Shown here piece after piece: positions 1-31,415 of a stretch of DNA of 40,367 bases. The notes below the pieces were generated by a model. The model did no database searches, was not told where the DNA came from, and saw only the letters and a list, made by a program, of their open reading frames with translations. The stretch lies in the NCBI GenBank assembly GCA_019455105.1, contig JACFMZ010000004.1, positions 1 to 40,367 on the forward strand, read 5' to 3'. How positions within the stretch are numbered: position 1 is the stretch's first letter; every line of letters starts with the position of its first letter. The translations under genes were made by a program, and so were the position numbers. Source of the stretch: Bacteroidota bacterium. Lineage in GTDB: Bacteria > Bacteroidota > Ignavibacteria > UBA10030 > UBA8401.

Positions 1-1176
1 TGGCGAAGCAGAATTATGTTCTGCCTGAACATATAAATTTTCGATATTAAATAAATTATAGCCTTTAATGCCTAATTGGTACGCTAATTTATTTCCCCAG
101 TATCCACGATTATGGATATATTCATTATAACTCATTTCATCTATCAATAACTGCCCATAGGTTATTAAATTTTCTGGTATTTTATATTTTATGTTAATAC
201 CCATTAACACATTATCAGGAGAGCCCAGTGAATATTCAATCGGACGAAAAAATATTACAGGGTTTAAATATTGCCAATCAAATCCCCGATATCCATATGT
301 AGAATCCATTTCTTTCCAAATAACCGATTCAAAAAAACCAATTGAAAGACGATTCGTTACATTCCAATCTAGATAATGAAAGACACCGTATTTTTTTTGC
401 CATACATGATTAATACTGTTAAATGCCGAATCAATATCTTGAAACTGAGCCCACATAATAAAATATTGCAAATCACCGAAGTAACCATTTAGTCTTAAAA
501 AGGGATAATTAAATCCTATGTCTGAAAGTAACATCGATCGATATCCGTCTCCGATAAAATTTTTATCGTGCCCGAATTGAACAGAAAAATAACGAGAAAT
601 GTTATACAATAAAAATCCTGAAGCATAGCCATAATCGTATACCCCCGGAGTATTTAATCGTCGAAATCCCTGACCGGGAATAATCAAATCCTTATTAACA
701 ATTGAATCAAGATAATTGGGAAATTTCGCTAGTGTTTCAAAATATTGAGCTCGCACAAATAAATTCTCTTCTATTCCAGCATTAAACTCAACTCCGCGAC
801 TGTTAACCCATGAGGTTTTATTATTATAAAAATCTTGTTGTAGAATAAAATCCGGAAAGAAATCTGCTGTCCACCAATACGATTTTTTTTTTGATTCAAA
901 GAGATGTTCATCAAATATTTTTCTTTCAACCCATGAATTTCCCTGATAATAAAAATTATTTCCTACTCTAAATATCGAATCAATGCTGATATTTATCCCG
1001 GAATGTGATAGATCCATCGGAAGTATTGACGAATGCGATAAATTTGAGTCTGAATAAATGTAAGGTGAAATACGATTCAAAACGTTATGAGCCAACGGAA
1101 TACTATAGGTTTGTGAATAAGATAAATTCAGGCCAACTACAGCAAAAAAAAATATTTTGAATATTTTATGAAACAA
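1..1176 (-). CDS. RemB/Wzi-like outer-membrane protein, partial (C-terminus beyond window)
   Basis: My own translation of the minus strand gives 392 codons open from a TTG at 1176-1174 to the window edge; no in-frame ATG lies between the upstream stop (1209-1207) and the first residues. A signal peptide is visible (basic MFHKIFK, a hydrophobic run, then SYSQ at about residues 19-22). Residues 201-219 carry FGHDKNFIGDGYRSMLLSD and residues 305-322 carry NPVIFFRPIEYSLGSPDN. I recall both as hallmarks of the RemB gliding-motility family, which is related to capsule-assembly Wzi barrels. Aromatic-rich alternating strands fit an outer-membrane beta-barrel. It is the last visible gene of the exopolysaccharide run, 46 bases after the GT4 gene. 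Role in binding or anchoring polysaccharide is inferred; the family call is fairly firm, the start less so. Confidence 0.72.
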   Translation of the reverse strand, partial: MFHKIFKIFFFAVVGLNLSYSQTYSIPLAHNVLNRISPYIYSDSNLSHSSILPMDLSHSGINISIDSIFRVGNNFYYQGNSWVERKIFDEHLFESKKKSYWWTADFFPDFILQQDFYNNKTSWVNSRGVEFNAGIEENLFVRAQYFETLAKFPNYLDSIVNKDLIIPGQGFRRLNTPGVYDYGYASGFLLYNISRYFSVQFGHDKNFIGDGYRSMLLSDIGFNYPFLRLNGYFGDLQYFIMWAQFQDIDSAFNSINHVWQKKYGVFHYLDWNVTNRLSIGFFESVIWKEMDSTYGYRGFDWQYLNPVIFFRPIEYSLGSPDNVLMGINIKYKIPENLITYGQLLIDEMSYNEYIHNRGYWGNKLAYQLGIKGYNLFNIENLYVQAEHNSASP

Positions 1177-2341: not shown

Positions 2342-3115
2342 TTACGAAATGCCTTTCAGTAGTTTCCATAATACGGTTTCTCGTAAATAATAGAATAATG
2401 AGGAGCACTTAAATTTAAATTTCAAAAGAGAATCATTAAGATAAACCCCTGTTCTTCTTAATGTATAAACAGTATTTGGAATATTGCTTCGAGGTGGCGT
2501 TACAACGGCAATACAATATCCTGCTTTTTTTACCGCATCAATAACAAAATTCTCTAAATTTCCATAAGGATAACAGAACGATATTACTTCTTCACTTATA
2601 TATTGTTCAAGAATCTGTTTAGATTTTGTCAACTCCTTTTCTACCAATTCTTTTGAAAGTTCTGCTAAATAAGGATGGCTAAGCGTGTGTGAGCCGAATT
2701 CTATGCCGGCTTTCTGCATTTCTTTTATTTGTCGTTCGGTTAATAAGAAATCAATATCTTCAGGCTGATACAATTTAGGGGAAGAAGAAAAATATAAATC
2801 ATTCTCGGAATTTATATAACCGGCAGTTAAAAATATTGTTGCCGGCACATTTAATTTTTTAAGAATTGGGAAAGCATATAAATAATTGTCCCGATATCCG
2901 TCGTCAAATGTAATGCAAAATACATTCTTTGGCGATTTCCCAATCAAAATATAGTCGCGATACAATTGTTTAAGAGTTATTGCCTTCCAGCCTTTTTGGA
3001 GGAAATATTTTAATTGAAGTTCAAACTGACCTTCTGTTACAGCAAGCGTCCCTCGAGTAACAGCAATATCATGCGGTAAGATTCTATGGTATGCGAGAAT
3101 TCGAAAATGATTCAT
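2342..3115 (-). CDS. Polysaccharide deacetylase (CE4 family)
   Basis: 257 residues with the NodB-homology signature: TFDDG at 69-73 (catalytic and metal Asp71/Asp72), SHTLSHP at 142-148 (metal-binding His143/His147) and FCYPYGN at 180-186. CE4 enzymes remove N- or O-acetyl groups from amino sugars in a metal-dependent way. No signal peptide is obvious, so it may act on lipid-linked intermediates on the cytoplasmic side, or on another small amide; this is inference. Its ATG overlaps the end of the methyltransferase gene by four bases and its stop abuts the GT4 start, so it sits in the middle of a coupled run. Substrate unknown. Confidence 0.88.
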   Translation of the reverse strand: MNHFRILAYHRILPHDIAVTRGTLAVTEGQFELQLKYFLQKGWKAITLKQLYRDYILIGKSPKNVFCITFDDGYRDNYLYAFPILKKLNVPATIFLTAGYINSENDLYFSSSPKLYQPEDIDFLLTERQIKEMQKAGIEFGSHTLSHPYLAELSKELVEKELTKSKQILEQYISEEVISFCYPYGNLENFVIDAVKKAGYCIAVVTPPRSNIPNTVYTLRRTGVYLNDSLLKFKFKCSSLFYYLRETVLWKLLKGIS

Positions 3116-3873
3116 TGAGGTTTCTTTAGAAGATAAATATTTGAAGAACTTCCGAATAAATAACTTAATATATGACGTTGGTTATTTGATAATCTTTTTC
3201 CGAAGAATCCATATCCGCTGCAATAAATTGCAGATGATTTAATTTCTTTAATAACCCAACCCTTTCGATTAAAAAGATTTTTCCAATAATACCTGCTGAA
3301 ATAGAATATTTGTGTAAAACAATTATCCTGTTTCGATAAGGCATGTGGAATCAAAGCTTTAATAATTTTTTCTTTTAACGTGAATTTTTTTGTCCTCTGA
3401 ATTATTGATTGCTCATGTCCAAAAAGTAATGACGATTTACTTATCACGGCAATAATCATTTTAATCAAAAATACATAATGATAGATAAGATTCCATAATG
3501 CATATCCAACCGATGGAATAATATGCACAGCATATCCGCCGGGTCGAAGTACGCGCATAATTTCCTCTTGAAATGAAATTTGTTCTTTAACATACATTAA
3601 AGAATGAGATGAAAAAATTAAATCAAACATTTCTCTATTAAAAGGGAAATGTTCCCCATCATATAATTCAACGTTAAAAACACGTGAATTCGAATAAATA
3701 CTCTCTTTAACATCTATTGCAGTTACTAAATATCCTTTCTCCGAAAACATTTTTGCCTGCCATCCCGCTCCGGCACCAATGTCAAGTATATTTGTAATCT
3801 TTAATGGATACAATAATTCCATTACTTTCTCAAGTTCATATTTTCGAAGCTCTCGTAAATAGTTCTCATCCAT
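3112..3873 (-). CDS. Class I SAM-dependent methyltransferase
   Basis: 253 residues. Motif I, DIGAGAGWQ at 31-39, and a later ELYDGEHFPF / FDLIFSSHSLMYV stretch followed by VLRPGGYAV match the Methyltransf_11 fold. It probably methylates a sugar or a lipid-linked glycan, judged only from its place among polysaccharide genes. The central part (about 125-215) contains hydrophobic and basic stretches that might contact the membrane. The ATG overlaps the flippase stop by one base (TAATG), which indicates coupled translation. Target atom and substrate are not predictable. Confidence 0.82.
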   Translation of the reverse strand: MDENYLRELRKYELEKVMELLYPLKITNILDIGAGAGWQAKMFSEKGYLVTAIDVKESIYSNSRVFNVELYDGEHFPFNREMFDLIFSSHSLMYVKEQISFQEEIMRVLRPGGYAVHIIPSVGYALWNLIYHYVFLIKMIIAVISKSSLLFGHEQSIIQRTKKFTLKEKIIKALIPHALSKQDNCFTQIFYFSRYYWKNLFNRKGWVIKEIKSSAIYCSGYGFFGKRLSNNQRHILSYLFGSSSNIYLLKKPQ

Positions 3874-5387
3874 TACAATATCTTAAAATTCAAATGTCGA
3901 AATATTATCTGAATTAAATCAGTCTTATATATTTTAAATATTCCAAAACATACACCAAGCAAGCAAAGATATATTAAGCTCAATAAAATTATCGAGGTTA
4001 TTGATGAGGATAGCAAAACAATACAACTAACGGCAATAAATGAACTAATTGATATTTTAAGTAAAAAAACATAATCATAGGTATATCCAATGTAATATGA
4101 GGCAAGATAATATTCGATAATTGTCGATAAAACAAATGAACTGCCAATAACAGCAATTGCGCCAACAATTTTATAATATGGGATAAATAAATAATTTATT
4201 ATAACACTCAAAATTCCTATACATAAACGAACAGCTAAAACCTTATTTTCCTGCTTCAAAGAAAATAAGATAGTTGCATTAAAATCTCTTGCAAACAACG
4301 CTACAGCAATAATATTAATCGACAAAAATGTTCTAAAAACCGGTGCTGCTGCCAAATATTTATCGGAGTACAGCAGCGTAATTATTTTTTCGGCAAACAG
4401 GATACAAAATATGCTGACTGGAATTATGACTAATTGAAAATATTGAATAACAATTTTCCTCGCATAGTGTAATTTAGACTTATCTTTTGTCGCCAACTCG
4501 GAAGCAACAGAAAGTCCAATTCCGGTAAATCCAAGGGCAAACAATGATTCAATCATTACCTCAAGAGAATAGCCTATATCGAAATAGGCAACGTCTGATA
4601 CTGCTCCTAAATGGTGGCTTAATAACAATATGCCTGCATATTTTCCAAGCAAAAGTGCTATAATTGAATTAAAGTAAATTGATATGCTAAACGATAAAAC
4701 AGACTGATACTCAAGCTCTCCTTTTTCTTTCGATAAAGATTTATTTAAAAAGATTATTAAAACAAAAAAAGTTAAGACTCCAATAATTGAATAAAGAGTC
4801 AGTAATTCTAATAACCCATATCCTGAATAAAGAAGTACGACAGTGATTCCGATAGTGGTAAGACGTGATAAAAAATTTATAAAAAAAATTAATGCAGTTT
4901 TAAAGTGTGCAATAAAATAACTGGATAGAAAGTTAATAAAACTTTGAAAACTGATATAACTTATGATATATACTGCATATTTTGCCGCATATGGATTATT
5001 AAAAATGACTTTAATTTCATCCTTAAAGAAGTAAAATATTATACACACAATTAATATAATTAAAGTTCTTAATTTAAAGAGAAAGAGCGTCAGTGATCTA
5101 ATATTTTGATACTTCTTTTCTGCATTATATTGTGAGACGTACTTTACTAAAGTATCATCAAATCCTCCGGAAACAATGAGAATTAATAGTGCTGCAATAC
5201 TCATTGTAGCAACATATCCGCCGTAATCATGTGGAACCATCATACGTGCAATAATTAAACTTAACAGATAGGTTAAGCCGATATCTGTTATCTTCCCCAG
5301 ATGATTCCAAAAGAACCCATCAATTGATTTACGTAAAAGACTCATTGATTTATTTAGTAAACTCCAATAATTTTCCGCTTCCGGCAT
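3873..5387 (-). CDS. Wzx-type lipid-linked oligosaccharide flippase
   Basis: 504 residues, almost entirely hydrophobic, with about 12-14 predicted membrane spans. The N-terminal region has the polysaccharide-biosynthesis (MOP superfamily) pattern, with GFFWNHLGKITDIGLTYLLS followed by ARMMVPHDYGGY. Members flip undecaprenyl-linked repeat units across the inner membrane. Two starts are possible: ATG at 5387, which overlaps the preceding gene's 3' end by 38 bases, or ATG at 5345 (MSLLRKS), which begins just after that gene's stop and gives 490 residues. Neither has a well-spaced Shine-Dalgarno site, and the second fits family N-termini better. It pairs functionally with the Wzy-like and Wzz-like proteins nearby. 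Confidence 0.85.
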   Translation of the reverse strand: MPEAENYWSLLNKSMSLLRKSIDGFFWNHLGKITDIGLTYLLSLIIARMMVPHDYGGYVATMSIAALLILIVSGGFDDTLVKYVSQYNAEKKYQNIRSLTLFLFKLRTLIILIVCIIFYFFKDEIKVIFNNPYAAKYAVYIISYISFQSFINFLSSYFIAHFKTALIFFINFLSRLTTIGITVVLLYSGYGLLELLTLYSIIGVLTFFVLIIFLNKSLSKEKGELEYQSVLSFSISIYFNSIIALLLGKYAGILLLSHHLGAVSDVAYFDIGYSLEVMIESLFALGFTGIGLSVASELATKDKSKLHYARKIVIQYFQLVIIPVSIFCILFAEKIITLLYSDKYLAAAPVFRTFLSINIIAVALFARDFNATILFSLKQENKVLAVRLCIGILSVIINYLFIPYYKIVGAIAVIGSSFVLSTIIEYYLASYYIGYTYDYVFLLKISISSFIAVSCIVLLSSSITSIILLSLIYLCLLGVCFGIFKIYKTDLIQIIFRHLNFKIL

Positions 5388-6903
5388 TGATGGTCAGCCA
5401 AAAACCATATTTTCCATTCATATTAACTACCGGAAATTGTTTTCCATTCTCTGATAGATTTTTTATTATAATCTGCTTCATACTGGAAAGAAATTTTGTT
5501 TCATCTAATTCAATAAAGAATTTTTCTTCTTTCAGCCGATTTTTATTAACAACGATCATAAATATATTTGGCAATTTTTGATGTTCAAATATTCCAATTA
5601 GAGCTGCATTGTTATTAATATTTTTAACGATTTTAAACTGACGCTCCTTCTCCGATAATATGGAGTCTTGAGTATTAATTTCCTTGATCCCATACCTACT
5701 AAATCCATTAGTATTTTTACTTGAAAACATTTTTTCGGTTAATTTACCGGAATCATATTTTGTACTTCCGTGATACGTACCGCGTGAAGTTAATTGTAGC
5801 AAAATATCTCCTATTGACAAAATTTCACGATTGAGAGTTGCAATAACAGGATATAAATCTGTTTCATTCCCCAATGCATCTAAAACTGCATTCTCTTCAT
5901 GCCATCCATTATTATTAATTGCTAGGGGAGGATTCCAAAAATTATAATACAATATCCCCTTACATCCGTATGCCAGTGAAGCATAAACTTGCAATCGAAT
6001 ATCGCTTTCTTTTGCTCTTCTGTAATATCTATGGGAATACGAACTCCAATGCTTATGAACTAAAATCCAATTCCAAAATGGAATATTTGTTTCAACGGAT
6101 TTTTGTCTGAATATTTCTAAATTATAATAGAAATCATTCGTCCAATCAGAATTTATTTCATCATTGAATTTTGAAGCCTGCACATCATCCCAAACCGGAT
6201 AATTATCATAACTTAATACTCGAGGCTTTGCTAATGTGATCCATTGAGAAACATATGATTCATAATTCCGGACAGCTGATGCCCCAAAAATATTTACATA
6301 AAAGAGCTTCTTATTAAACCATGAATTTGTATCATCTGTTGAAAACTTCTGAGACCAATTTGCAAAATACGAGAACTCAGATTCTTTCGGCTCATCAACT
6401 GAAATACCGTAACAATATCTCGAATCATATATTCTTTCCAGAACAGCAGGCGTGCCATAATCAGCAGCATTCTTTATTCGATAATCATAAGTAATAAAAG
6501 ATATTTTTTGCCGATTTGATTCTCTATTTATTTGCTCCAATGCATTAAGAAAATTATTGTAATAAGTTCTTTCATTTGACGGCGTAAGAGTCGGAGTAAA
6601 CGATGAACGTATTATTGTGAAATCTGCATTAAATATTTTTTTTATAAACTCATACAGGAATACAGCTGTTGGCTCCCGATAATTATTATTTTTAGAATCA
6701 AATATATATCGCGGAATATTATTTGCGACAATCGGAAACCGATAACCGTCGACTCCCGGAAAATTCCACTGATGTTTTAACATAATATTTTGCTGGGCAG
6801 CTAAATTAGAATTTAATAAAGCTGCCAAGCTGAATAAAACAAATCTTAACCGTATATCAAGAAATTGAAAAAATAATTTCCTATTTCGTTTATCTACATT
6901 CAC
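5350..6903 (-). CDS. Secreted TIM-barrel glycoside-hydrolase-like protein of the polysaccharide locus
   Basis: 517 residues from a GTG start, five bases after the Wzy-like gene. A signal peptide is likely (basic start, hydrophobic RFVLFSLAALL, then NLAAQQ near residue 37). Successive segments look like beta strands of a TIM barrel: ISFITYD (134-140), YCYGISVDEP (163-172, with acidic D170/E171), PRVLSYDNYP (227-236), PFWNWILVHKHW (275-286) and a motif from R303 to Y320 ending in AYGCKGILYYNFW. The last resembles strand 8 of GH-A-like barrels, where an ALAYGAKGI-type motif is common. The C-terminal 150 residues look like a beta-sandwich. I do not recognise a named family. It could trim or degrade the exported polysaccharide, or be a non-catalytic binder; the function is inferred from context. 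Confidence 0.6.
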   Translation of the reverse strand: MNVDKRNRKLFFQFLDIRLRFVLFSLAALLNSNLAAQQNIMLKHQWNFPGVDGYRFPIVANNIPRYIFDSKNNNYREPTAVFLYEFIKKIFNADFTIIRSSFTPTLTPSNERTYYNNFLNALEQINRESNRQKISFITYDYRIKNAADYGTPAVLERIYDSRYCYGISVDEPKESEFSYFANWSQKFSTDDTNSWFNKKLFYVNIFGASAVRNYESYVSQWITLAKPRVLSYDNYPVWDDVQASKFNDEINSDWTNDFYYNLEIFRQKSVETNIPFWNWILVHKHWSSYSHRYYRRAKESDIRLQVYASLAYGCKGILYYNFWNPPLAINNNGWHEENAVLDALGNETDLYPVIATLNREILSIGDILLQLTSRGTYHGSTKYDSGKLTEKMFSSKNTNGFSRYGIKEINTQDSILSEKERQFKIVKNINNNAALIGIFEHQKLPNIFMIVVNKNRLKEEKFFIELDETKFLSSMKQIIIKNLSENGKQFPVVNMNGKYGFWLTINAGSGKLLEFTK

Positions 6904-6908
6904 TTTAT

Positions 6909-8255
6909 CTATAATATTAAATCCGAAAAAGAAAGTATGGCATTGTCTTGTTTATCTTTCAGAGCTATTTTTTCTGCAGCCTTTATCGTAGAAACGGCAA
7001 ACCCAGCATAAATCCAAAATGAAAATAGCGATATAAACGTATGATAAAAAAAACCCTGGATAAGATATGTTGCTAACAGAAAGCTATGACCGATTAACAA
7101 CGGTTTGTAGAAACGATCATTAGTATTTTTTATTGATCGAACAAGCTCCTTAAAGAAGCTGTAAAAAAACCAAATGAACCCGATTAAACCAAAAATTCCC
7201 TGTTCACAAAATACTTCAAGAAACCAATTATGCATTGAAACGGTAAATCCCTTTTGTTCATACATCTCAAGCGTCATGGACATAGCATTTTGCATATAAT
7301 TTGAAGCATAAAAATTTTGAAAATTTGTATATCCAATACCGAACAACCAATTTTTTTTAAGAATATCAATACCGCCAATTAGAATTTGTAATCTATTAAA
7401 AGTAGATAGTTCTAAAACGGCAGATTGTGCATTACTTTCAATACGAAGAATAAAAATTATAATAATAGCAACAATACAAATTATTAAAACTACGCTAATC
7501 GTAAGAAACTCTTTTTTTCTATTCTTTAATAAAAAAGCAAAGACGATTATCCCAAACATTAAAGTCAAAAGGCTACTTCGTGACAAGGTTAATACCAGAC
7601 AAATTAACGCTAATAGGCAAAAAATTATAAGATGATTTTTTCGAAAAGTATTAGTTGTATCAAAAAAATAAAAAGACAGCATATAAAAAATTCCGAATAA
7701 AAGAAAACGTGCAAAAATATTCGGATCATGGAATATAGACGATAATCTTGTAAAGCCAAATAATGACGGTGAAAAAAATGAGAGAAGAACTAAAATAATT
7801 GAAAGAATAATGGTCCAGTAGAACGAATAGATCAAATAACGAGCTATGCGCACCTGAAGAGTTTTTGTATCAAACCAGAAGGGAATAACATAGAATGTAA
7901 CAATGAGAAGAGGATAGGTAAGAACGCTAAACAGCGCTCTTGTAAATATCATTTGAGATTTAAGTAAAGAGAATACAACAGATATAACTATCGTCACCGT
8001 ATAGAGCAATAGTGGTTTTTCAAAATTTAATGAAGGAAAACGTAATAGCGCTTTTTGCTGAGATAAAATGATAAGGGTATAAATTGCAATATATCCTATA
8101 ATAAATCTTAATAAAGCATGTCTTATAATATTAAGTATTGTATTATCAGTAAAATCAAATATTGGCAAAAAGAGAGTAAGGAAAAGAATTAATTGAATTG
8201 GCGTTATTGAAGAAATAGAAGTAATGATTGACAATACTATTTTTTGAATTTTCAT
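6909..8255 (-). CDS. O-antigen polymerase/ligase-type membrane protein (Wzy/WaaL family)
   Basis: 448 residues with about 10-12 membrane spans. It has the LTLSRSSLL motif (222-230, R226) in a membrane segment and the large periplasmic loop ending in SMHNWFLEVFCEQGIFGLIG (340-359). The His342-Asn and Glu residues there are the signature of the Wzy_C/O-antigen ligase family. Members either polymerise repeat units at the periplasmic face or ligate glycan to an acceptor. With a Wzx flippase and a Wzz-like protein in the same run, polymerase is the better guess. It follows the Wzz-like gene after a 78-base gap. Confidence 0.82.
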   Translation of the reverse strand: MKIQKIVLSIITSISSITPIQLILFLTLFLPIFDFTDNTILNIIRHALLRFIIGYIAIYTLIILSQQKALLRFPSLNFEKPLLLYTVTIVISVVFSLLKSQMIFTRALFSVLTYPLLIVTFYVIPFWFDTKTLQVRIARYLIYSFYWTIILSIILVLLSFFSPSLFGFTRLSSIFHDPNIFARFLLFGIFYMLSFYFFDTTNTFRKNHLIIFCLLALICLVLTLSRSSLLTLMFGIIVFAFLLKNRKKEFLTISVVLIICIVAIIIIFILRIESNAQSAVLELSTFNRLQILIGGIDILKKNWLFGIGYTNFQNFYASNYMQNAMSMTLEMYEQKGFTVSMHNWFLEVFCEQGIFGLIGFIWFFYSFFKELVRSIKNTNDRFYKPLLIGHSFLLATYLIQGFFYHTFISLFSFWIYAGFAVSTIKAAEKIALKDKQDNAILSFSDLIL

Positions 8256-8333: not shown

Positions 8334-9554
8334 TTATCTTTTTTTAATATGAAAATCCTGTTTAAGCGTTGTATAGATCGTCAGAATTTTCTGATATTTT
8401 TGAGGGGACAAAACTTTAATATTTTCCACGTGTTCTAAAATAAGAACTATCGCAATCGAAAATACAAAAGAACCAAAGAAACCTACAAATGCAATAACAA
8501 ATCTTAATGGTTTTGCTTTTTTGGTAGGAATTATTGCTTTATCAATAACAAGAATACTTGGAGTTTCTCTCTTTTCCTGAATTTTTGCTTGTTCAAGCAA
8601 TGTAACAACAATTTTTAATAATTCTGTTTGTATTTGAATTTCTCTGTACAGTCGAACATATTTTAAGGCAAGCTCCGGAGTTTTTGAAAAAGGAATAAAA
8701 ATATTTTGTTCTTTTGACTGTGTTCCATCAATCATTTCATTAAAAGATTTATTGATTTCGGCAATTTGAATTTTTAATTGTTTAATTTCGGGTGAATCTT
8801 TGTCGAACATCTTTTCTTTAATTCCTAAATCAATTTCCTTCAATACTAACTCAGATTTTAGTTCCGCCGCAGACTTTATTGCTGCCTGTGTTTGAGCATC
8901 AATACTATAGACTCTGTATTTCTCTTGAAAATGCTCCATTGAGTCTTCTAATACACTAATATCATGGAAGGTTTGCCGATAACGATTTTCAAGATGTTCA
9001 CGACTATTTTTTGCTGCCTGTGCATTAACATTAGTGTAAACTTTATTCAGCATTTCGATATAATATTCCGTTAACTGTGTCGCAAACGCCGGATCTTTAT
9101 CATAAATACCTAAGGTAATTATTTCAGCCAATATATTTGGCGTAATTACCGTATTGCCTTTTAGCACTTCACGGGCATCTTCAATCTTCTCAACACGATA
9201 CCTCTCTAAAAGTTTAAATTTTTTGATAATAGAATCTTGAACAGTTTGAGAGTTAAGCAAAGCTGTTAAATAATTAATTTCGCCGCCGCCGCTTGAAGGC
9301 ATTGCAAAATCTGCTAAACTGCCAAGGCTCGCAAAAGCACCGGATGATTTTAGTAAATTCCCAACGTTTAAACTAGATGAAGACGCCCCTTTAATACTTG
9401 AATATGCTATATAGTATTTCGGTAAAATAAGAGCTATAACTATTGACAAAATCAGACCTAAAAGTGTCGTGAAAAATATAAATTTTCGCCTTTTCAGAAG
9501 TTTTAATAAAAAATCTAAGAAGATTTCGCTTGCTTTATCTGAATGAGTATCCAT
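8334..9554 (-). CDS. Wzz/GumC-type chain-length determinant (polysaccharide co-polymerase), no kinase domain
   Basis: 406 residues with the Wzz architecture: a short cytoplasmic start, TM1 at about 26-48, a long periplasmic region rich in predicted helix and coiled coil (about 180-320), and TM2 at about 353-376 preceded by the basic KKAKPLRF segment. Such proteins control glycan chain length and couple Wzy to the export channel. The C-terminal tail after TM2 is about 30 residues, with no Walker motifs or Tyr-rich cluster, so there is no BY-kinase fusion and no separate kinase in the window. The gene follows the Wza-like gene by 22 bases. Confidence 0.87.
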   Translation of the reverse strand: MDTHSDKASEIFLDFLLKLLKRRKFIFFTTLLGLILSIVIALILPKYYIAYSSIKGASSSSLNVGNLLKSSGAFASLGSLADFAMPSSGGGEINYLTALLNSQTVQDSIIKKFKLLERYRVEKIEDAREVLKGNTVITPNILAEIITLGIYDKDPAFATQLTEYYIEMLNKVYTNVNAQAAKNSREHLENRYRQTFHDISVLEDSMEHFQEKYRVYSIDAQTQAAIKSAAELKSELVLKEIDLGIKEKMFDKDSPEIKQLKIQIAEINKSFNEMIDGTQSKEQNIFIPFSKTPELALKYVRLYREIQIQTELLKIVVTLLEQAKIQEKRETPSILVIDKAIIPTKKAKPLRFVIAFVGFFGSFVFSIAIVLILEHVENIKVLSPQKYQKILTIYTTLKQDFHIKKR

Positions 9555-9576: not shown

Positions 9577-11184
9577 TTACTGTTTAATCAATAAATACAA
9601 TGTTGCTACGGTTCCTAAAATTCCAAACACTTTGCTGTACACATCTAAATAATAGGCAAAAGTGCGATACGGTTCTTTTGGTATCCAGACATAATCACCT
9701 TCTTCAATTGTTGTTTTCCCCGGATCTACCCATTGACGCGTTGAGGCTTTAATAATCTTTATATCGCCGGAACGGGCATCATCAGTTAATCCGCCGGCTT
9801 TTTGAATGTAATATTTATAATCCTTCCCTTCTGCAAAAAGAATATGTCCCGGTGTTATCACCTGACCAAAAACATACACGGTTTTTTTCTTCACAGCAAT
9901 GTTTATATAATCGCCGTCGCGAAGAAGAATATCTTTCGCCGTATTTTTATTTTGGAAGAGATCATAAAAATCTGCCACTACTAATTCCCGATTAATACGA
10001 ATATCGGTTTCAAGATAATAATACGCACTGTCCTCAGAAGTAAGTCCGCCTCTGCCGCTTTCTAACCGCTCGATGGAAATATCACTCGGGTTAACAGAGC
10101 GGCGAAAGAGTTGTGAATTATTAAGTGATGCTCTTTCGGTAAATCCCCCTGCCAACGCAATCACTTCGCTTAAATATGTTGAGTCTTTGGTAATTGGATA
10201 AAATCCCGGAAACTTTACCTCTCCATGAATTTCCACCTTGGCATCCCTATTATTTATATAAATAGGATAAACAGTAATTCTATCACCGCGGTGAAGGATA
10301 AAATTCGGTTCGCTGCCATTGATAATTTTTCTTAAGCTGACATGAAATGTTGTTGTTTGCTGCAAGCTGTCAATTCTTGTGATAACAATATTATCGCTGT
10401 CGGCAAGAGATGTTGTGCCCCGCGCAATTTTTATTGCAGTAAGTAAACTATCCCCTTCAGCATATTCATATTGTCCTTCCTTATTTACTGCTCCATAGAC
10501 ACCAAAGAAATCACTTTTTATATTTTTTTTAGGAGCAATAACCACATCACCATCCCTCAGTAAGGGATTATATAACGTATTTAGTGTTGCATAATATTTT
10601 TCTAAGTCAGCCGATGAGGTTGTTCCGTTCTTATGAAGAATAATAATGTTACGCTGCGCAATAAGAGAATCACGTTTTCCTTTTTCATCAAGATAATTTA
10701 CCACAGCATCAACACGCTGAGTTGACTGTACATAAAATGTCATTTCATTTTTTACAGCGCCTCGAAGAGTAACACTGAAGGTGCGCGGCTGCAATAACGT
10801 AAAGGAAGAAATTCCCGATAAGTATTTCTTTTTAATTTCTTGCAATGCCAGTGTTTTTGCTTCTTCTAATGTCTTACCGGAAATATTGAATTCGCCGACA
10901 GTCGGAATAATAACTGTTCCTTCCGGCGTAACCGGTACTTGAAAATTTATCGGCGCCGCCGCCCAAATATTTACGCTGAAAACATCCCCGGGTCCCACAA
11001 TATATTCCTTCGGGTCAACCGGTCCGTCTTGAATTGCCGTTCGCAGTAACGGCGATTCCGTTTGTTTCATCTGAGTCTGAGGCGTAGTGTTATTATTCTG
11101 CCGGTCAGAATTTTTATCAAACAACTGAGCGTGGCCGTTTACGGAAAGAAGAAAAACAATTACAATGCTGGTAAATATTCTCAT
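9577..11184 (-). CDS. Polysaccharide export outer-membrane protein (Wza-like, SLBB repeats)
   Basis: 535 residues. A signal peptide ends near residue 20 (SVNGHAQ); no lipobox Cys is present, unlike enterobacterial Wza. A Poly_export domain begins at YIVGPGDVFSVNIWA. It is followed by several SLBB-type repeats, recognisable by GAVNKEGQYEY, GEVKFPGFYPI and GQVITPGHILF, each followed by an ARG or AGG turn. The protein ends in a hydrophobic helix (VFGILGTVATLYLLI) near the C-terminus that could insert in a membrane. It should form the outer-membrane/periplasmic channel that works with the Wzz-like protein encoded next. It lies nine bases after the dTDP-glucose dehydratase gene. Confidence 0.9.
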   Translation of the reverse strand: MRIFTSIVIVFLLSVNGHAQLFDKNSDRQNNNTTPQTQMKQTESPLLRTAIQDGPVDPKEYIVGPGDVFSVNIWAAAPINFQVPVTPEGTVIIPTVGEFNISGKTLEEAKTLALQEIKKKYLSGISSFTLLQPRTFSVTLRGAVKNEMTFYVQSTQRVDAVVNYLDEKGKRDSLIAQRNIIILHKNGTTSSADLEKYYATLNTLYNPLLRDGDVVIAPKKNIKSDFFGVYGAVNKEGQYEYAEGDSLLTAIKIARGTTSLADSDNIVITRIDSLQQTTTFHVSLRKIINGSEPNFILHRGDRITVYPIYINNRDAKVEIHGEVKFPGFYPITKDSTYLSEVIALAGGFTERASLNNSQLFRRSVNPSDISIERLESGRGGLTSEDSAYYYLETDIRINRELVVADFYDLFQNKNTAKDILLRDGDYINIAVKKKTVYVFGQVITPGHILFAEGKDYKYYIQKAGGLTDDARSGDIKIIKASTRQWVDPGKTTIEEGDYVWIPKEPYRTFAYYLDVYSKVFGILGTVATLYLLIKQ

Positions 11185-11193
11185 GAAATTCTC

Positions 11194-12207
11194 TTATCGC
11201 TTTGAATATTGTGTTTCATAATATTTTAAATATTCGCCGGACATCACCCGCTCCCACCATCTCCGATTGCCGACATACCAGCGCACCGTCTCCACAATTC
11301 CTTTTTCAAATGTATGAGCAGGTTCCCAACCGAGTTCATTCTTAATTTTTGAGGCATCAATGGCATAGCGCCGGTCGTGTCCGGGGCGGTCTTTTACATA
11401 GGTAATAAGTGATTCCGGCTTCTGAAGTTCTTTTAAAATTGTTTTAACAATTTCAATATTCGGTTTTTCGTTGTTTCCGCCGATGTTATAAACTTCGCCG
11501 AAAACTCCTGTATGCAGAACCGTGTCAAGCGCCGAGCAATGGTCTTCAACATACAGCCAGTCGCGGACATTCATTCCATCGCCGTACACCGGAAGCGGTT
11601 TATCGTTCAGCGCGTTGGCAATAATTAACGGAATTAATTTTTCAGGAAATTGATACGGACCGTAATTATTCGAGCAGCGCGTTACAATTCCAGGAAAACC
11701 GAAGGTGTGTTGATACGCCAAGACCAGCAAATCAGATGATGCCTTGCTTGCCGAGTACGGACTGTTCGGGTGAAGCGGCGTCGTTTCGGTAAAAAATCCC
11801 GCAGCGCCGAGCGAACCGTACACTTCATCGGTAGAGACATGAAGAAATTTTTTTATACCGGCTTCACGACTGACTTCTAATAAAACATTTGTGCCGACAA
11901 TATTGGTGTGAATGAAAACAGACGGTCCTAAAATACTTCGGTCAACATGTGATTCCGCTGCGAAATGTACAACTGTATCAATCTCATATTTTGTGAAAAT
12001 ATCATTCACTTCGGATTTATTTGTAATATCCCCTTTTACAAATGTATAATTTGCAGAATGCTCAACTTCAGATAAGTTTTCCAAATTTCCGGCATATGTT
12101 AATGCATCAAAATTAATAATGTTATACTGAGAATACTTTTTCAGCATAAAACGAACAAAGTTACTGCCAATGAAACCGGCGCCGCCGGTAACGAGAATAT
12201 TTTTCAT
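11194..12207 (-). CDS. rfbB: dTDP-glucose 4,6-dehydratase
   Basis: 337 residues, standard length. Rossmann motif GGAGFIG at 8-14 binds NAD+. STDEVYG at 125-131 gives Thr126, Asp127 and Glu128, the catalytic trio of the dehydratase, and YSASK at 151-155 gives Tyr151 and Lys155. [11 protein letters not shown] near 275-285 is also typical of the RmlB family. It converts dTDP-glucose to dTDP-4-keto-6-deoxyglucose, precursor of rhamnose and many other deoxy sugars. It is the first gene of the exopolysaccharide run, after a 136-base gap. The partner genes rmlA, rmlC and rmlD are not in the window. Confidence 0.95.
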
Positions 12208-19691: not shown

Positions 19692-20116
19692 TCTATACGC
19701 TCAATAATAATTGTTCGTTCATTTTCAGTGCCGCCGTGAGAAAGAAAAACATTACAACGCTTTTTCGGAAGGCGTTGAAGAATATTCTCCGCCCATTCAA
19801 TAACACAGATGCCGTCACCAAAGAGATATTCATCAAACCCGATTTCATCCAACTCGTTTAGCGAACGAAGCCGGTAGCAGTCGAAATGGTAAAGAGGAAA
19901 TTTCCCTCCGGCATGTTCACTGATGATGGTAAATGTCGGGCTGGCAACAATTTCCGTAATTCCCAGCCCCAGCGAAATTCCTTTTGCAAATCTGGTTTTT
20001 CCGCTTCCAAGATCACCGAAGAGAGCCACCACATCTCCTTGCCGCAACTGTGACGCAAAATTTTTTCCTTCCTGAATTGTTTCTTCTTCAGAATATGTGG
20101 TAATTTGCTTCTTCAC
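19688..20116 (-). CDS. tsaE: tRNA t6A biosynthesis ATPase TsaE
   Basis: 142 residues, family length. The Walker A motif GDLGSGKT is at 34-41; ASPTFTII (58-65) and FDCYRL (78-83) follow, then VIEWAE (105-110), all diagnostic of the TsaE/YjeE P-loop ATPase. It drives turnover of the TsaBD complex. The start is GTG and overlaps the porX stop by four bases, so it is probably translated by coupling. The porX-tsaE neighbourhood is, as I recall, common in Bacteroidota. Confidence 0.94.
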   Translation of the reverse strand: MKKQITTYSEEETIQEGKNFASQLRQGDVVALFGDLGSGKTRFAKGISLGLGITEIVASPTFTIISEHAGGKFPLYHFDCYRLRSLNELDEIGFDEYLFGDGICVIEWAENILQRLPKKRCNVFLSHGGTENERTIIIERIE

Positions 20117-21681
20117 TTTTTCGGTTCTAAGGTTATCACCGGAAGAATCATTTCTTCCATTGAAATACCGCCGTGCTGAAAGCTGTCGCGGTATTGATTT
20201 AAATATTTATGATAATCCGTGGGATAGACAAAGTAATAATCTTCTTTGGCAACAATATAATTTGTTGTTACGGTGCGCTGCGGCAGTTTATATTCTTTCG
20301 GATTTTTCAGGAAGATTGACTGCTTATCATCCGATTTTAAGTTTCTTCCGAATTTGTAGCGAAGATTCGTTGAAGCTTCTTTATCGCCGATAACTTTCGA
20401 GCCGCGCAGGCAGCGGACGCTTCCATGGTCGGTAGTAACAATTATTTTTATATCTTTTTTTGTTGCCAAAGTTTGAAACATTGCCAGAAGCGAAGAATGC
20501 TTAAACCACGAATTGGTCAGCGAGCGATATGCCGATTCATCCGGCGCAATTTCTTTTAAGATTGGATCATCCGACCGACCGTGCGCAAGCATATCAACAA
20601 AATTTACAACAATTGCCGTCAGCTTGTTTGAAGCGTATGATAAAATATTCGATTGAATCTGGCGGCCGTATTCAACATCCAGAATTTTAATATATTTTGC
20701 TTCCGGTTTTAGCGGCACTTTTTTTCGCTCCAATAATTTATCGAGCAGCTGTTTTTCGTACTTGTTGTGGCTTGATTCAAGATCATCATCTCCCTGCCAC
20801 AATTCGGGAAACCGCTGTTCCAGTTCTGAAGGAAACAATCCGCTGAAAATTGCATTGCGCGAATAGGGTGTTGCCGTCGGAAGAATGGAATAATAATATT
20901 CTTTCTGCATTGAAAATAAATCGCGCAGATATTCTTCCATTACCAGCCATTGATCCAGCCGCATACAGTCAATCACAAAGAAAAATATTGAAGGTGAAGA
21001 TTGCAGTTTCGGCAGAACATATTTTTCAATAACTTCAGTGGAAAGCGCCGGGCGATTTTCTTTTGCATTAATCCACAGCCGGTAATTGCGTTCAACATAT
21101 TTTGAAAATTCCGCGTTTGCTTCGCGCACCTGATCTGCCAGCATTTTTTGCAATCCCAGTTCAGGATGAAGATCCAGTTCCATCTGCCAGTTAACAAGTT
21201 TAACATAGAGTTCAATCCATTCCGTGTAATCCAGCGGATTAAGAAGCTGGCGGGAGATTGCCGAAAATTGTTCGGTATAGCCGCGTGAAACTTGTTCGCC
21301 CTGAATTTTTTTCCCTTCAATAAATTTTTTGCACGCCAGAAGCACTTGACTTGGATTCACCGGCTTCGTTAAATAATCCGAAATTTTACTGCCGATGGCG
21401 TCTTCCATTAACGATTCGGCTTCGTTCTTCGTAATCATTACAGCGGGAAGCGACGGAGAAATTTCTTTAATCACAGAAAGCGTTTCAAGTCCCCCTTTTC
21501 CCGGCATCATCTCATCTAAAAAAACAAGATCGAAATCTTTTGTCTTTACCAGTTCAATGGCATCTTCGCCGTTGGTAGCTGTTTCAACATGAAAACCTTT
21601 CTCCTGCAGCAGCAGCACATGCGCGCGAAGCAGTTCAATTTCATCATCAACCCACAAAATATTTCCTTTATTCATTTCCAT
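20113..21681 (-). CDS. porX: PorX-type response regulator with PglZ phosphodiesterase-like domain
   Basis: 522 residues. An N-terminal CheY-like receiver domain (about 7-120) has VDDE at 11-14, the phospho-acceptor Asp56 in FLDEMMPG, and Lys106. A helical linker leads to a PglZ domain of the alkaline-phosphatase superfamily (about 230-500), with metal-site candidates Asp238 in VIDCMRLDQW, Thr271 in PTATPYSR and TTDHGS further on. PorX regulates the type IX secretion system together with the kinase PorY and a sigma factor, and its PglZ domain has been reported to cleave oligonucleotides. AAGGAG lies ten bases before the ATG. It follows sprA by 14 bases. A partner kinase is not in the window. 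Confidence 0.92.
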   Translation of the reverse strand: MEMNKGNILWVDDEIELLRAHVLLLQEKGFHVETATNGEDAIELVKTKDFDLVFLDEMMPGKGGLETLSVIKEISPSLPAVMITKNEAESLMEDAIGSKISDYLTKPVNPSQVLLACKKFIEGKKIQGEQVSRGYTEQFSAISRQLLNPLDYTEWIELYVKLVNWQMELDLHPELGLQKMLADQVREANAEFSKYVERNYRLWINAKENRPALSTEVIEKYVLPKLQSSPSIFFFVIDCMRLDQWLVMEEYLRDLFSMQKEYYYSILPTATPYSRNAIFSGLFPSELEQRFPELWQGDDDLESSHNKYEKQLLDKLLERKKVPLKPEAKYIKILDVEYGRQIQSNILSYASNKLTAIVVNFVDMLAHGRSDDPILKEIAPDESAYRSLTNSWFKHSSLLAMFQTLATKKDIKIIVTTDHGSVRCLRGSKVIGDKEASTNLRYKFGRNLKSDDKQSIFLKNPKEYKLPQRTVTTNYIVAKEDYYFVYPTDYHKYLNQYRDSFQHGGISMEEMILPVITLEPKK

Positions 21682-21695
21682 TTCACGTTCTCTCC

Positions 21696-24600
21696 TTATT
21701 GAATTGAAATATGCACATCCAGCCCTCCTTCGTTTGTTGTAGAACCGGGAATTTTAGATCCTCCTTCATCGGGCGCAATTTTCCGGTACCGATAGAAGAG
21801 CGAAGCGGTAACGCGCGAACTTAACACATACCGAATGCGGGGCTCCATTGTTGTGGTGGAAGAACCTTCGCCCGGAATTCCTTTGGTATTCAATGCGCTT
21901 GCTGCTCCGACACCTTTCACGTCATACGTTATGCGGGTATTTTTTGCATAGGTATAAGAAAAGCTGAGATCAACATCGTTCTGCAAAGTTAATCCGAAGA
22001 GCGGAATTTCAAAACCTGAACGTCCGTAACTTGCTGTAAACGACATTTCCCGCGTTGCGCCTTCAACAATATTTTTTGATGCCGGAGTAAGATCGTAATT
22101 CACGTTAGCGCTGTATCGTAAATTTGCGCTCATTGTTCCTTTTAATAATTCCTTAAATGAAATATTCAATCCAATTAACGGAGCAAAACCATAGGCAATA
22201 CGCTGTGATTCAATAATCTTGTCTCCCGTCGAAGCATCAATTTTAAATCCTTTTCGATACGTGGAATTATATCCGTGGTCTAAACTGACCCGTGTTGCGA
22301 ATTTTTTAAAGAGAGCCATTTCTTCTAAACCATCCCATCGCAGCGTATAATTCAAGCGGGGCAGAATATCGCTGAAGAGTTTTTTCAAAATCGGCAGTGA
22401 TTCAAATCCGGTTTCAAATGCTTCGGAAAGTTTTCGATCGTCGGTTCTTTTATCGTTAGTATTGGTAACGAGAGCGGTATATTGCTTTCCGACATCTTCA
22501 ATGCCGCTTTTAAACATAGAAAAAACAAAGACCGGCGGCATAGTAAAAAACGAGCGTTCCACAGAACCGCTGCTTGCAACACTGACAATTGAATCACGAC
22601 CAAACCTGTCTGTTTGTATTCTTCGTGTTTGATTAAAATCCCAACCTAAATTCCAATTAAGGTCAACGCGGGCGCCTTTCCACAAATCGCGGCTGGTGCG
22701 TAATTGTATTTTATTGCTTTGCGAATAGGCATCATTTAAACTGGCGCGGGGCGCCCGTACTTCTTCATCCGCATCAGTACTGAATTTTACAAAAGGAAAT
22801 TTTGAACTGAACGCAACATCCGTAATATTTGCGCTCGGCGAAGTTACTAAACCGAGCTGGTAAGCCCGCGATGGACCGTACGCCGGGTTGGCATTCTGCA
22901 CCAGCGGTGCTCTGCCGAAAAAGTTTGCAAATCCTGGTCTGCCGAGTACTCCGCCGTTCTGAGAATTATTCGTTTGTGTAAAAGAAATATTTATTTTGTC
23001 ATAATCAAAGAAGGGAGTTTTAATAATAATGCGGGCAAGATCCAGCAGCCCTTCTGTTCCGAATTTACTTTTCGGCGCTGCAACAGAATCCGCCGGTGCT
23101 GTATCGGCAGATTGAGTCTCATCTTGAGGAGCGCTTTCAATATCTTCGTTTTCATGACGAGATCTTCTTCTGGAAGGCGCCGGCGCTGTCTCCGTTGCAG
23201 GAGTAATTGCTTTACTTACGGGCCACCATGATTCTACAAATTGTTTAAGAGAAATATCCGTCCCCAGCCCGATGCTGTTACTCCATCCGGTGCTGATTCC
23301 TAAAATTCCCTGCTGAGGATTATACTGCCAGCGATATCCGACTTGGTACCGGCCGCTTAATGAAACATATTTATTCAGATCGAAAAGAGTTATCATGCGC
23401 GGTTTGGTGTTAACGCTAAACGATTGTGTATAAGAATTATCGGTTCCGAAATATATCAGCTGATCTTTCATAAACATCTGATCGAGTATGCTTAAAAAGC
23501 TGCGCTGATTTCCATACCGGTCAAGTTCCAAATGAAGCAGCGTGCTGGCAATATCTACCGAATAATCGCCGGAAAGATTCAGCAGACCGTTTTCGGTCAG
23601 TTTCCAAGAGAATGATAAATTCCGCGATGCCGATAACCCGCGGACAATCGGATTATTTTTTGTTTGATTTCGAAAACGCTCTTCTGTCCGCGAGCGTGCT
23701 AATGAAAAAGATGTATTAAAGTTGGTGAACGGAATGAAATACAACTGCACATTTTTAAATTCCGAAAGAATCGGAATGTCTTCAAAAATATCAAACGGCT
23801 GCAAATAATTATTCGCATCAAACGTGTAGGAATAGGCGATGCGCGCATTCCACTGCCAGGAATTTCTAAATTCAGTTGCCGGCGAGCGATTAATGGACGA
23901 ATTATAATTAAATCCATAATTCAACCGGTTGACAAAATTTTTGAAAAACCAATTCTGCGACGGTACGGAAATACGAAACGTCGGCAGCGCATACGTTTCG
24001 GTAATAGATAAGGTTTGAGATTGTATAATAATTTCTTTCGGATCGGTATTGACGGTACTTTCAATTCTTGTCCGCCGTGCCAGTAATTGTTTATACTCCG
24101 TTGAATCGTGAACTCCTCCCCATTGAAAATCTGCAATCTGCTGATTCACCTGCGCCAGCTCAATTTTCTTTGCATCAATTGCCTGCTGCTGTTGTTCTGA
24201 AGCTTTCGTTACAACAACATCCGAACTCGGCAGATAGAGCGGCGTTGCCATTTGTTCGCTGTGAGAATAACTGAACGGCAGCGAAGTTCCCTGCCAGCTC
24301 TGCGGCAAAAACTTTTCAAGATAAAAATTTGAAGAAAAATTCCAGTTCTTGGATGTTACTCTGCTTCCGACCCGGTCTTCTAACCGATGAAAATACGGAT
24401 CAGTCTGCGAATAGGTAAATGCAACAGAACCCAAATCGGCAAGTTTTAATGTTGTGCTGACGCTGTACGCCCACCCCGGCGTGTCATCCGGATCTATTAA
24501 GCGAAGTTCGTTCACCCAAATCTGTCCGCTGATAACACTCTCTCCGGTGGACGCAGGATTTTCCACACCGATAGAAATATAATTTATTCTCGTTAAGGTC

Positions 24601-30266: not shown

Positions 30267-31415
30267 TTAATACGGTTTGGTAAAAAAGATATAGACTACA
30301 ACAATAAGAATGGAATATTGCAGCACCTGCGCATACGTCATACTCCATCCTTTTATTCTATTCCAAAGATACGATACCGCAATAGTTGCGGCAACAAGAA
30401 TTATTGTCATTCCAAGCACTTCCGGAACTGTGCGCGTTTTGCCGATAATAAAGGAAAGACTGTGGTCGTTAAAAAACATTCCGTAAATTACCAGCAAATG
30501 CCCCGCGTACGCTACCAGCGATTCGGAGCCGACAATGCTGACGAAAGATTTTTGCGAGTTTCGTTTCTGTTCCCAAAACCACAATCCTCCCAGAAGTGTT
30601 ATAACAATTCCCAGCCGCATAAAAAAGAAACCGGGACTTGAGCGCCAATAATCATGCGGCGGATATAGTTCAATGCCGAAATATTTTGTAACCACCGTGA
30701 GTAAAACAAAAAATATTCCCGCCGTAACGATGCGGAAAAATATTTTCTCTTCAACAGTTTTTTCTTTTTGCCACACAACAAGCTGCGACACAACGCCGCC
30801 GGAAAGCACAAATGCCATCCACGGGAAAAGCGGAAACAGCGAATGATGGTAAGCGCTGAAATAATTTGCAATCGGAACGGCTAAGTATTCATCGAAATTT
30901 TTATCGTACACCAGCGGCGAAAGAAAAATAATAACAAGACTGGAAAAGACAACCGCCGCAAAAAATTTCTTCCTTTCCCTGAAAATTACTACCAACAGCA
31001 GAAGAAATGCCAGGGAAAAAGCAATGCAATGTAATACGTCAACCTTCCAAAAAACATCCAATTCCGCGCTTTCAATACGTAATAATTTTTTAAACGAAAA
31101 AAAAGGAAGATGCAGAGCATACCCCACAAGCCACACCTGAAGAATTCTTCCGATTTGTTTCCAGAACACCGGTGAAAATGTTAAATAGTCATTCCATTTG
31201 CGCTGGGCAACAAGAACAAATGCATAACCGGAAATAAATAAAAATGCCGGAGCAACAAGTCCGTTAATAAAATTGAGAACCTTAAACCACTCTGCTTCAC
31301 GAAATTCAGACAGAAGAAAAGTGTTAAACACATGCACTTCAACCATTACCAGCACGGCGAAGCCGCGAAGCAGATCAATATAAATGAACCGTTTTTTTTG
31401 TTCTTTCTTTACCAT
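30267..31415 (-). CDS. Multi-span membrane acyltransferase-like protein (HGSNAT/DUF1624-like), copy 2
   Basis: 382 residues with about 10 membrane spans. The N-terminus, with YIDLLRGFAVLVMVEVH followed by NGLVAPAFLFISGYAF, matches the membrane acyltransferase pattern in which an Arg and a His lie at the ends of TM1. Other shared segments are GYALHLPFFS, DVLHCIAFSLAFL, HDYWRSSPGFFFMRLG and GSESLVAYAGHLL. It is clearly a paralogue of the gene just upstream. Such proteins transfer acyl groups to sugars or lipids across the membrane. The substrate is unknown. The ATG overlaps the end of the first copy by seven bases. Confidence 0.72.
   Translation of the reverse strand: MVKKEQKKRFIYIDLLRGFAVLVMVEVHVFNTFLLSEFREAEWFKVLNFINGLVAPAFLFISGYAFVLVAQRKWNDYLTFSPVFWKQIGRILQVWLVGYALHLPFFSFKKLLRIESAELDVFWKVDVLHCIAFSLAFLLLLVVIFRERKKFFAAVVFSSLVIIFLSPLVYDKNFDEYLAVPIANYFSAYHHSLFPLFPWMAFVLSGGVVSQLVVWQKEKTVEEKIFFRIVTAGIFFVLLTVVTKYFGIELYPPHDYWRSSPGFFFMRLGIVITLLGGLWFWEQKRNSQKSFVSIVGSESLVAYAGHLLVIYGMFFNDHSLSFIIGKTRTVPEVLGMTIILVAATIAVSYLWNRIKGWSMTYAQVLQYSILIVVVYIFFTKPY

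What the first reader, a model, noticed from the sequence alone, without database searches (positions are those of the whole stretch)
5350..6903. Secreted TIM-barrel glycosidase-like protein inside a Wzx/Wzy locus
Between the polymerase and the flippase lies an exported 517-residue protein with GH-A-like strand motifs (VDEP at 169-172, a strand-8-like segment from R303 to Y320) that I cannot place in a named family. A dedicated hydrolase in a capsule operon could trim, release or recycle the polymer.
Basis: partly seen in the sequence, partly recalled or inferred. Interest (0 to 1): 0.55.

Follow-up and report, generated by a model that had tools for sequence, protein, structure and literature searches.

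The report
Exported hydrolase-like barrel in exopolysaccharide operon
A bacterium that makes a sugar coat carries, between the genes for the chain builder and the chain flipper, an exported barrel protein that looks like a sugar-cutting enzyme rebuilt with an unusual active site, and its relatives often sit in the same kind of operon.

Summary
In detail: an exported-looking 517-aa protein (5350-6903, minus strand) lies 5 nt after wzy and 4 nt before the likely wzx start. It matches no Pfam or NCBIfam family above cut-off. A 38-40% identical relative (L006) sits in a matching operon. Of 14 similar-sized relatives examined, 9 lie in Wzz/Wzy loci and 5 do not. Fold evidence, none of it strong alone, favours a TIM barrel related to GH42: profile-profile 31-96% depending on template set, one relative above Pfam's GH42 cut-off, GH42/GH5/GH99 top in structure comparison. 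Both AlphaFold models are poor (pLDDT 47-49). An adjacent Asp-Glu is the arrangement of substrate-assisted GH123 enzymes, but no kinship to GH123 was found. Best reading: a PslG-like exported glycosidase acting on its own locus's polymer, probably by 2-acetamido participation. Activity is untested; a binding-only role is not excluded. New variant of a known kind, moderate interest.

The parts
5350..6903 (-). the gene in question: exported-looking 517-aa protein with a TIM-barrel-like core and a C-terminal beta domain
6796..6903 (-). N-terminal export signal-like stretch, residues 1 to about 36
   Evidence: sequence and hydropathy; cleavage site not predicted
5779..6762 (-). barrel core, residues 48 to 375
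   Evidence: alternating strand/helix pattern in low-confidence models; VIA-align 2 Z 11.4 to GH42, GH5 and GH99 chains, pyruvate kinase 11.1
6388..6396 (-). strand-4 motif D170-E171-P172; D170 and E171 invariant in 14 of 14 (P172 in 13); E171 aligns with the Glu and D170 with the Asn of the GH42 Asn-Glu motif (acid/base role of that Glu recalled)
6205..6207 (-). D233 at the end of strand 6, invariant in 14 of 14
6058..6081 (-). strand 7 (residues 275-282, PFWNWILV): the Glu of the GH42-type templates (nucleophile by recalled motif) aligns with W279 or I280, so it is missing here
5944..5997 (-). strand-8 segment R303-Y320; A311, G313 and G316 invariant in 14 of 14
5353..5778 (-). C-terminal beta-rich domain, residues 376-517
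   Evidence: blocks of ten residues from 421 on have pLDDT 74-86 except 54 at 471-480; 381-420 is 27-54;
6909..8255 (-). Wzy-type polymerase (Wzy_C)
3873..5387 (-). Wzx-type flippase; likely true start at nt 5345
8334..9554 (-). Wzz-type chain-length protein (GNVR above cut-off; Wzz just below it)
9577..11184 (-). OPX/SLBB outer-membrane export protein (Poly_export, SLBB)
11194..12207 (-). dTDP-glucose 4,6-dehydratase (RmlB)
   Evidence: TIGR01181, 513.7 bits
3112..3873 (-). SAM-dependent methyltransferase
2342..3115 (-). polysaccharide deacetylase (CE4 type)
   Evidence: PF01522 107 bits
1223..2341 (-). GT4-type glycosyltransferase

Best explanation
The protein is an exported glycosidase dedicated to the polymer of its own Wzx/Wzy exopolysaccharide locus, working like PslG of Pseudomonas. 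It is built on a GH42-like TIM barrel whose active site has been changed: Asn-Glu at the end of strand 4 became Asp-Glu (D170-E171) and the strand-7 nucleophile was lost. The most economical mechanism is substrate-assisted catalysis on a 2-acetamido sugar. D170 would hold and polarise the acetamido group, E171 would be the acid/base, and D233 and Y235 on strand 6 would support. Acting in the periplasm near Wzy and Wzz, it would trim or clear nascent or misdirected chains. Shown here: gene position, operon synteny, conservation pattern, absence of an acid at the strand-7 position. Supported but not proved: barrel fold, kinship to GH42, export. Inferred: hydrolytic activity, mechanism, substrate, and role in synthesis or turnover.
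For: Operon and synteny: the order rmlB-SLBB-Wzz-Wzy-this gene-Wzx-methyltransferase-deacetylase-GT4 recurs in L006, with a wecB and an FkbM-type gene added and a methyltransferase-like gene not matched by blastp to the window's. In the order, 3 of 98 genomes have a match at E<=1e-15, and all three genes lie between a Wzy and a Wzx (in L006 with the FkbM-type gene after Wzy; in L039 the Wzx-side neighbour matches Polysacc_synt below cut-off). In 9 of 14 members whose surroundings I read, the locus holds a Wzz match and a Wzy_C protein. Conservation: D170, E171 and D233 are the only acids invariant in 14 of 14. Fold: L040:6748 passes the Pfam GH42 cut-off (26.1 against 21 bits); profile to the GH42 structure 5xb7 E 2.9e-5; hhalign to five GH42-matching proteins 95.6%, to three of them 66.3%, against 0.1-0.4% for eight unrelated families, 0.3% for GH123 and 0.2% for two reversed controls; VIA-align Z 11.4 to 4uoq (GH42). 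Mechanism precedent: in GH123 the consecutive DE motif is the 2-acetamido stabiliser plus acid/base, tested by mutants (PMC11087588, passages). Role precedent: PslG and its activity contribute to Psl production; inner membrane and periplasm (PMC6813494, abstract and passages).
Against: Both AlphaFold models are low in confidence (mean pLDDT 49.1 and 46.7), so the barrel rests on secondary-structure order and distant profiles. Foldseek's own best hit for the core was KDO8P synthase, a non-glycosidase barrel, and pyruvate kinase scores nearly as high as GH42 in VIA-align. hhalign to the other two GH42-matching proteins gave only 30.9%, and the profile of the nine EPS members alone gave 2.8% against the three-protein set; the template sets of 95.6% and 66.3% overlap and are not independent. 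Profile-profile comparison with GH123 gave 0.3%, so the mechanism is an analogy of motif and not of descent. Evidence for a 2-acetamido sugar in the polymer is thin: within the stretches fetched, a deacetylase like the window's is in 2 of 9 EPS loci, and wecB matches also occur in loci without this gene. 5 of 14 members lie outside such loci as far as their contigs go. No activity has been measured.
Confidence: 0.42

Rival explanations
1. Active glycosidase of the EPS locus, but not substrate-assisted: inverting, with E171 as acid and D233 (or another acid) as base, or retaining with a relocated nucleophile such as the acid near 336-337 after strand 8.
For: D233 is as invariant as D170 and E171; position 337 is acidic in 12 of 14.
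Against: The alignment around 337 is gappy. A consecutive Asp-Glu pair has a tested meaning in GH123 (passages).
Confidence: 0.25
2. A former glycosidase that no longer cleaves and serves as a sugar-binding chaperone or scaffold for Wzy/Wzz and the growing chain.
For: The strand-7 position of clan GH-A has no acid in 14 of 14. In the six-member EPS clade (L035, L036, L037, L038, L062, L063) the N-terminus is strongly hydrophobic and looks like a single membrane anchor, which suits a scaffold.
Against: A dead enzyme would be expected to let the strand-4 acids drift, yet D170 and E171 are invariant even between EPS and non-EPS members.
Confidence: 0.2
3. Canonical clan GH-A retaining hydrolase with Glu on strands 4 and 7.
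For: Barrel and strand-4 Glu agree; distant kinship to GH42.
Against: No acid at positions 279-282 in any of 14 members; the template Glu aligns with W279 or I280.
Confidence: 0.05
4. A transferase that re-joins or attaches chains (transglycosylase or ligase-like) rather than a hydrolase.
For: 7vl0, a beta-1,2-glucosyltransferase of Ignavibacterium album, is among the fold neighbours (Z 10.8); presumably it is the GH35 protein of PMC8861115, a novel glycosyltransferase acting on beta-1,2-glucosidic linkages (title and start of abstract only).
Against: No specific feature points to it; the Wzy_C protein in the operon already covers polymerisation or ligation.
Confidence: 0.06

Closest known systems
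PslG (GH39) of the Psl locus, Pseudomonas aeruginosa
   Same: Exported glycosidase encoded inside an exopolysaccharide synthesis locus; inner membrane and periplasm; contributes to production (PMC6813494, abstract and passages). GH39 and its barrel are recalled.
   Different: In PslG an E165Q + E276Q mutant was used (passage); here no second Glu stands at the GH-A strand-7 position and no GH39 Pfam match appears among 11 members.
GH42 beta-galactosidases (clan GH-A)
   Same: Distant sequence and fold kinship; E171 aligns with the Glu of the strand-4 Asn-Glu motif; strand-8 motif alike.
   Different: Asn before that Glu is Asp here; no acid at the strand-7 position; the window protein itself does not match the Pfam model.
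GH123 beta-N-acetylgalactosaminidases
   Same: Asp-Glu-Pro at the presumed catalytic strand: found in the expected context in all 10 fetched GH123-matching proteins once the frame of L115 was corrected; DE role described in PMC11087588 (passages).
   Different: No sequence kinship detected (hhalign 0.3%); no GH123 Pfam match in any of 11 members.
PgaB (deacetylase domain plus GH153 domain)
   Same: A deacetylase and a glycosidase serve one polymer (PMC5933820, abstract and passages); the operon here also holds a deacetylase with partial similarity to PgaB (92 bits, cut-off 321.9).
   Different: Separate genes; no PgaB chain among PDB matches with E up to 10 or 1; a passage says the PgaB domain has no equivalent of the Glu next to the catalytic Asp of DspB, whereas D170-E171 has one.
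PrmQ (GH16) of a Sphingomonas exopolysaccharide pathway
   Same: Predicted exported glycosidase of an exopolysaccharide pathway, discussed beside a distinct rugose colony form (PMC11340318, passages).
   Different: GH16 is a different fold (recalled).

Membership tests
clan GH-A (TIM-barrel glycosidases) | (beta/alpha)8 barrel | tested here: inconclusive
   Strand/helix order fits and VIA-align Z is 11.4 to GH42 and GH5 chains, but model pLDDT is 46.7 and pyruvate kinase scores 11.1.
clan GH-A (TIM-barrel glycosidases) | acid/base Glu at the end of strand 4 (feature recalled) | tested here: met
   E171 aligns with the Glu of the Asn-Glu motif in two overlapping GH42 template sets and is invariant in 14 of 14.
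clan GH-A (TIM-barrel glycosidases) | nucleophile Glu at the end of strand 7 (feature recalled) | tested here: not met
   The template Glu aligns with W279 or I280 in two sets (a third set misaligns strand 7); no acid at 279-282 in 14 of 14; one D at 278 in L062.
GH42 | Pfam PF02449 cut-off | tested here: not met
   No match for the window protein. Of the 11 members scanned two gave any match; L040:6748 is above the cut-off (26.1 bits), the score of the other was not shown.
GH123 | consecutive catalytic Asp-Glu | tested here: met
   D170-E171 in 14 of 14; role described in PMC11087588 (passages). That they occupy the same place in space was not tested.
GH123 | sequence kinship (PF13320 or profile-profile) | tested here: not met
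   No PF13320 match in 11 members; hhalign 0.3% with the corrected set of 10, 0.04% with the first set, one row of which was in a wrong frame.
PslG / GH39 | gene inside an exopolysaccharide locus and exported | tested here: met
   Locus. Export judged from the sequence only.
PslG / GH39 | GH39 sequence model and Glu pair | tested here: not met
   No GH39 match in 11 members at E up to 10; second Glu missing.
GH153 / PgaB barrel | sequence kinship to the PgaB barrel | tested here: inconclusive
   No Pfam match of that kind and no PgaB chain among PDB matches; fold not compared directly.
any glycoside hydrolase | measured cleavage of a glycosidic bond | not testable with these tools
   needs purified protein and polymer

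The most novel reading that the evidence does not exclude
An undescribed glycosidase family in which a GH42-like barrel has given up its nucleophile and gained an Asp-Glu pair, changing from double displacement to 2-acetamido-assisted catalysis, and in which two or three branches (window with L006; the six-member clade; L039, whose place is unsure) are dedicated partners of Wzx/Wzy exopolysaccharide machines.
Probability: 0.28. Interest if true: 0.6.

Novelty: new variant of a known kind. Interest (0 to 1): 0.42.

Why it matters
Why exopolysaccharide loci carry their own polymer-cutting enzymes is unsettled. In the passages read, PslG is both a degrader and a contributor to synthesis, and the start of one abstract calls the physiological role of such enzymes in biofilm development unclear (PMC9894940, search listing). 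A family that recurs in Wzy-bearing loci, in the window's order at the polymerase/flippase junction, gives an independent test in a different group of bacteria. If the changed active site works as proposed, it would also show how one barrel changes catalytic mechanism, and could give a tool for cutting amino-sugar exopolysaccharides.

Tried and rejected
Rejected: chance ORF (syntenic relative). Viral or plasmid origin: no relatives confirmed in viral contigs (0 of 42 and 0 of 24 pattern matches), none in plasmids, none in PHROGs. Canonical GH-A pair: no acid at the strand-7 position. GH123 membership: no kinship. The Pfam match to T4_Gp59_N (19.8 bits, cut-off 25) covers the N-terminal signal region and was taken as chance.

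Led nowhere: two AlphaFold jobs on 2-row alignments gave pLDDT 49 and 47. Foldseek gave weak mixed hits, KDO8P synthase for the core and alpha-amylase-type enzymes, mostly over short stretches of about 80-110 columns, for the whole. GH123, GH39, GH18, GH20 and PgaB are not among the VIA rows shown; those rows cannot exclude them. The genome-contig scan confirmed 1 of 113 pattern matches. Six paper searches showed no title or abstract start that describes this family; most of their lists were capped, and nothing wider is claimed.

Not counted: the larger, partly matching proteins (for example L003, L004, L020, L021, L032, L045-L052) were left out of the 14-row alignment and their neighbourhoods were not read. 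Of the 17 other Wzz-positive genomes of the family, 15 EPS loci were fetched (not G020, G004); several are cut by contig ends. Among the five members counted as outside EPS loci, L064 has only a 5.2-kb contig, so its wider surroundings are unknown.

Wzy_C was checked by Pfam for the EPS loci not yet tested.
Full report
Observation. The ORF is real and as described, on the minus strand. It begins 5 nt after wzy. The likely wzx start (nt 5345, matching the start of the L006 Wzx) is 4 nt after its stop. The operon reads rmlB, SLBB/OPX export protein, Wzz-type, Wzy, this gene, Wzx, methyltransferase, deacetylase, GT4-type transferase. Pfam gives only a sub-cut-off match to T4_Gp59_N at the N-terminus; NCBIfam gives none. 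The 14 members scanned against NCBIfam show only T9SS-tail-related and unrelated weak matches.

Relatives. The own genome has one copy. By single sequence, 4 of 60 close genomes match at E<=1e-3, the own genome included, and only G015 matches strongly; 2 of 395 match in the phylum at 1e-5, again with the own genome. The same protein as in G015 stands in a named record (L006, Bacteroidetes bacterium DBS2-5.bin30) with the operon order kept, plus wecB and an FkbM-type gene, and with a methyltransferase-like gene that blastp does not match to the window's. By profile, own genome included: 21 of 391 in the class at 1e-5, 11 of 395 in the phylum at 1e-8, and 3 of 98 in the window's order at 1e-15. 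In two other families of the class: 8 of 80 in f14 and 2 of 6 in f60, both at 1e-15. Many of the weaker matches are parts of larger proteins.

Neighbourhoods. I read the surroundings of 14 genes of similar size (440-542 aa) in 13 genomes. Nine lie in EPS loci: window, L006, L035, L036, L037, L038, L039, L062, L063. All nine have a Wzz match and a Wzy_C protein. A Wzx-type protein above the Pfam cut-off is seen in window, L035, L036, L037, L038 and L062; in L006 it is a blastp match of 35% to the window's, in L039 it is below cut-off, and L063 ends before it. Five do not lie in such loci: two in L040, and one each in L041, L042 and L064, the last on a 5.2-kb contig. In the window's family, 19 of 22 genomes have a Wzz match, but only 2 of the 22 carry this gene strongly. 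None of 15 other EPS loci fetched holds a blastp match to it. So the gene goes with certain EPS locus types and is not a fixed part of Wzx/Wzy systems. In the tree, window plus L006 and the six-member clade are each starred (100/99 and 100/100). The EPS label needs 2 changes on the tree; L039 and L042 are long branches whose place is unsure.

Fold. Both AlphaFold models are weak (mean pLDDT 49.1 and 46.7). The strand/helix order of the core model fits an eight-fold barrel with D170-E171 after strand 4 and D233 after strand 6; in the whole protein a beta domain follows. VIA-align on the core ranks 4uoq (GH42), 4lyr (GH5) and a GH99-type chain at Z 11.4, but pyruvate kinase also reaches 11.1. 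For the whole model, 9m0b (alpha-agarase) has Z 11.2 and the best GH42 chains 9.2-9.8. Foldseek alone put KDO8P synthase first for the core. Sequence profiles are a separate line: 5xb7 (GH42) E 2.1e-5 and 2.9e-5; L040:6748 passes the GH42 cut-off; hhalign gives 95.6% against five GH42-matching proteins, 66.3% against three of them and 30.9% against the other two; eight unrelated families and a reversed control give 0.1-0.4%. The profile of the nine EPS members alone gives 2.8% against the three, so the link runs through the wider family.

Active site. Over 14 aligned members the only invariant acids are D170, E171 and D233. In hhalign, E171 pairs with the Glu of the GH42 strand-4 Asn-Glu motif and D170 with the Asn. 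The strand-7 Glu of the templates pairs with W279 in one set and I280 in another; which template Glu is acid/base and which nucleophile is recalled from the family motifs. No member has an acid at 279-282. The 66.3% set aligns strand 7 elsewhere and says nothing about it. A consecutive Asp-Glu pair is the GH123 arrangement, in which Asp stabilises the 2-acetamido group and Glu is the acid/base, with mutants showing little to no or reduced activity (PMC11087588, passages). The ten GH123-matching proteins fetched here all carry DEP in a like context, but show no kinship to this family (hhalign 0.3%).

Role. The nearest described parallel is PslG: an exported glycosidase of an exopolysaccharide locus whose activity contributes to production and whose inner-membrane fraction matters (PMC6813494, abstract and passages). 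The six-member EPS clade has a strongly hydrophobic N-terminus that looks like an anchor. PgaB couples a deacetylase with a glycosidase domain (PMC5933820, abstract and passages), and the window operon also has a deacetylase. A gene like it is seen in 2 of 9 EPS loci within the stretches fetched (window and L006), so it is weak support for an amino-sugar polymer. My best reading is a PslG-like enzyme with a rebuilt, probably substrate-assisted active site. A binding-only or an inverting enzyme cannot be excluded.

Noticed in passing
window 21696-28694 and 20113-21681, minus strand: A 2332-aa ORF matches SprA_N (PF14349, 211 bits); next to it is a response regulator fused to a PglZ domain, as in PorX (name recalled). 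Together they look like type IX secretion parts.
   Followed up: partly
window 2342-3115, minus strand: Polysaccharide deacetylase without an evident signal peptide; its best NCBIfam match is PgaB, far below cut-off, so it may act in the cytoplasm rather than on the exported chain.
   Followed up: no
window 1-1176, minus strand: Open-ended ORF with a signal-like start just after the GT4 gene; no Pfam match. It may be an outer-membrane barrel of the same operon.
   Followed up: partly
window 30267-32551, minus strand: Two adjacent membrane acyltransferase-like genes that resemble each other by eye; the first matches HGSNAT_cat and Acyl_transf_3.
   Followed up: no
L040 4708-8070: One contig holds two full members of the family and a fragment of a third in a row, with no EPS gene match on the contig; possible duplication.
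   Followed up: no
L020, L032, L003: Much larger relatives (about 850-915 aa) end in sequence that by eye looks like a T9SS tail, so the wider family may include surface-exposed forms.
   Followed up: no
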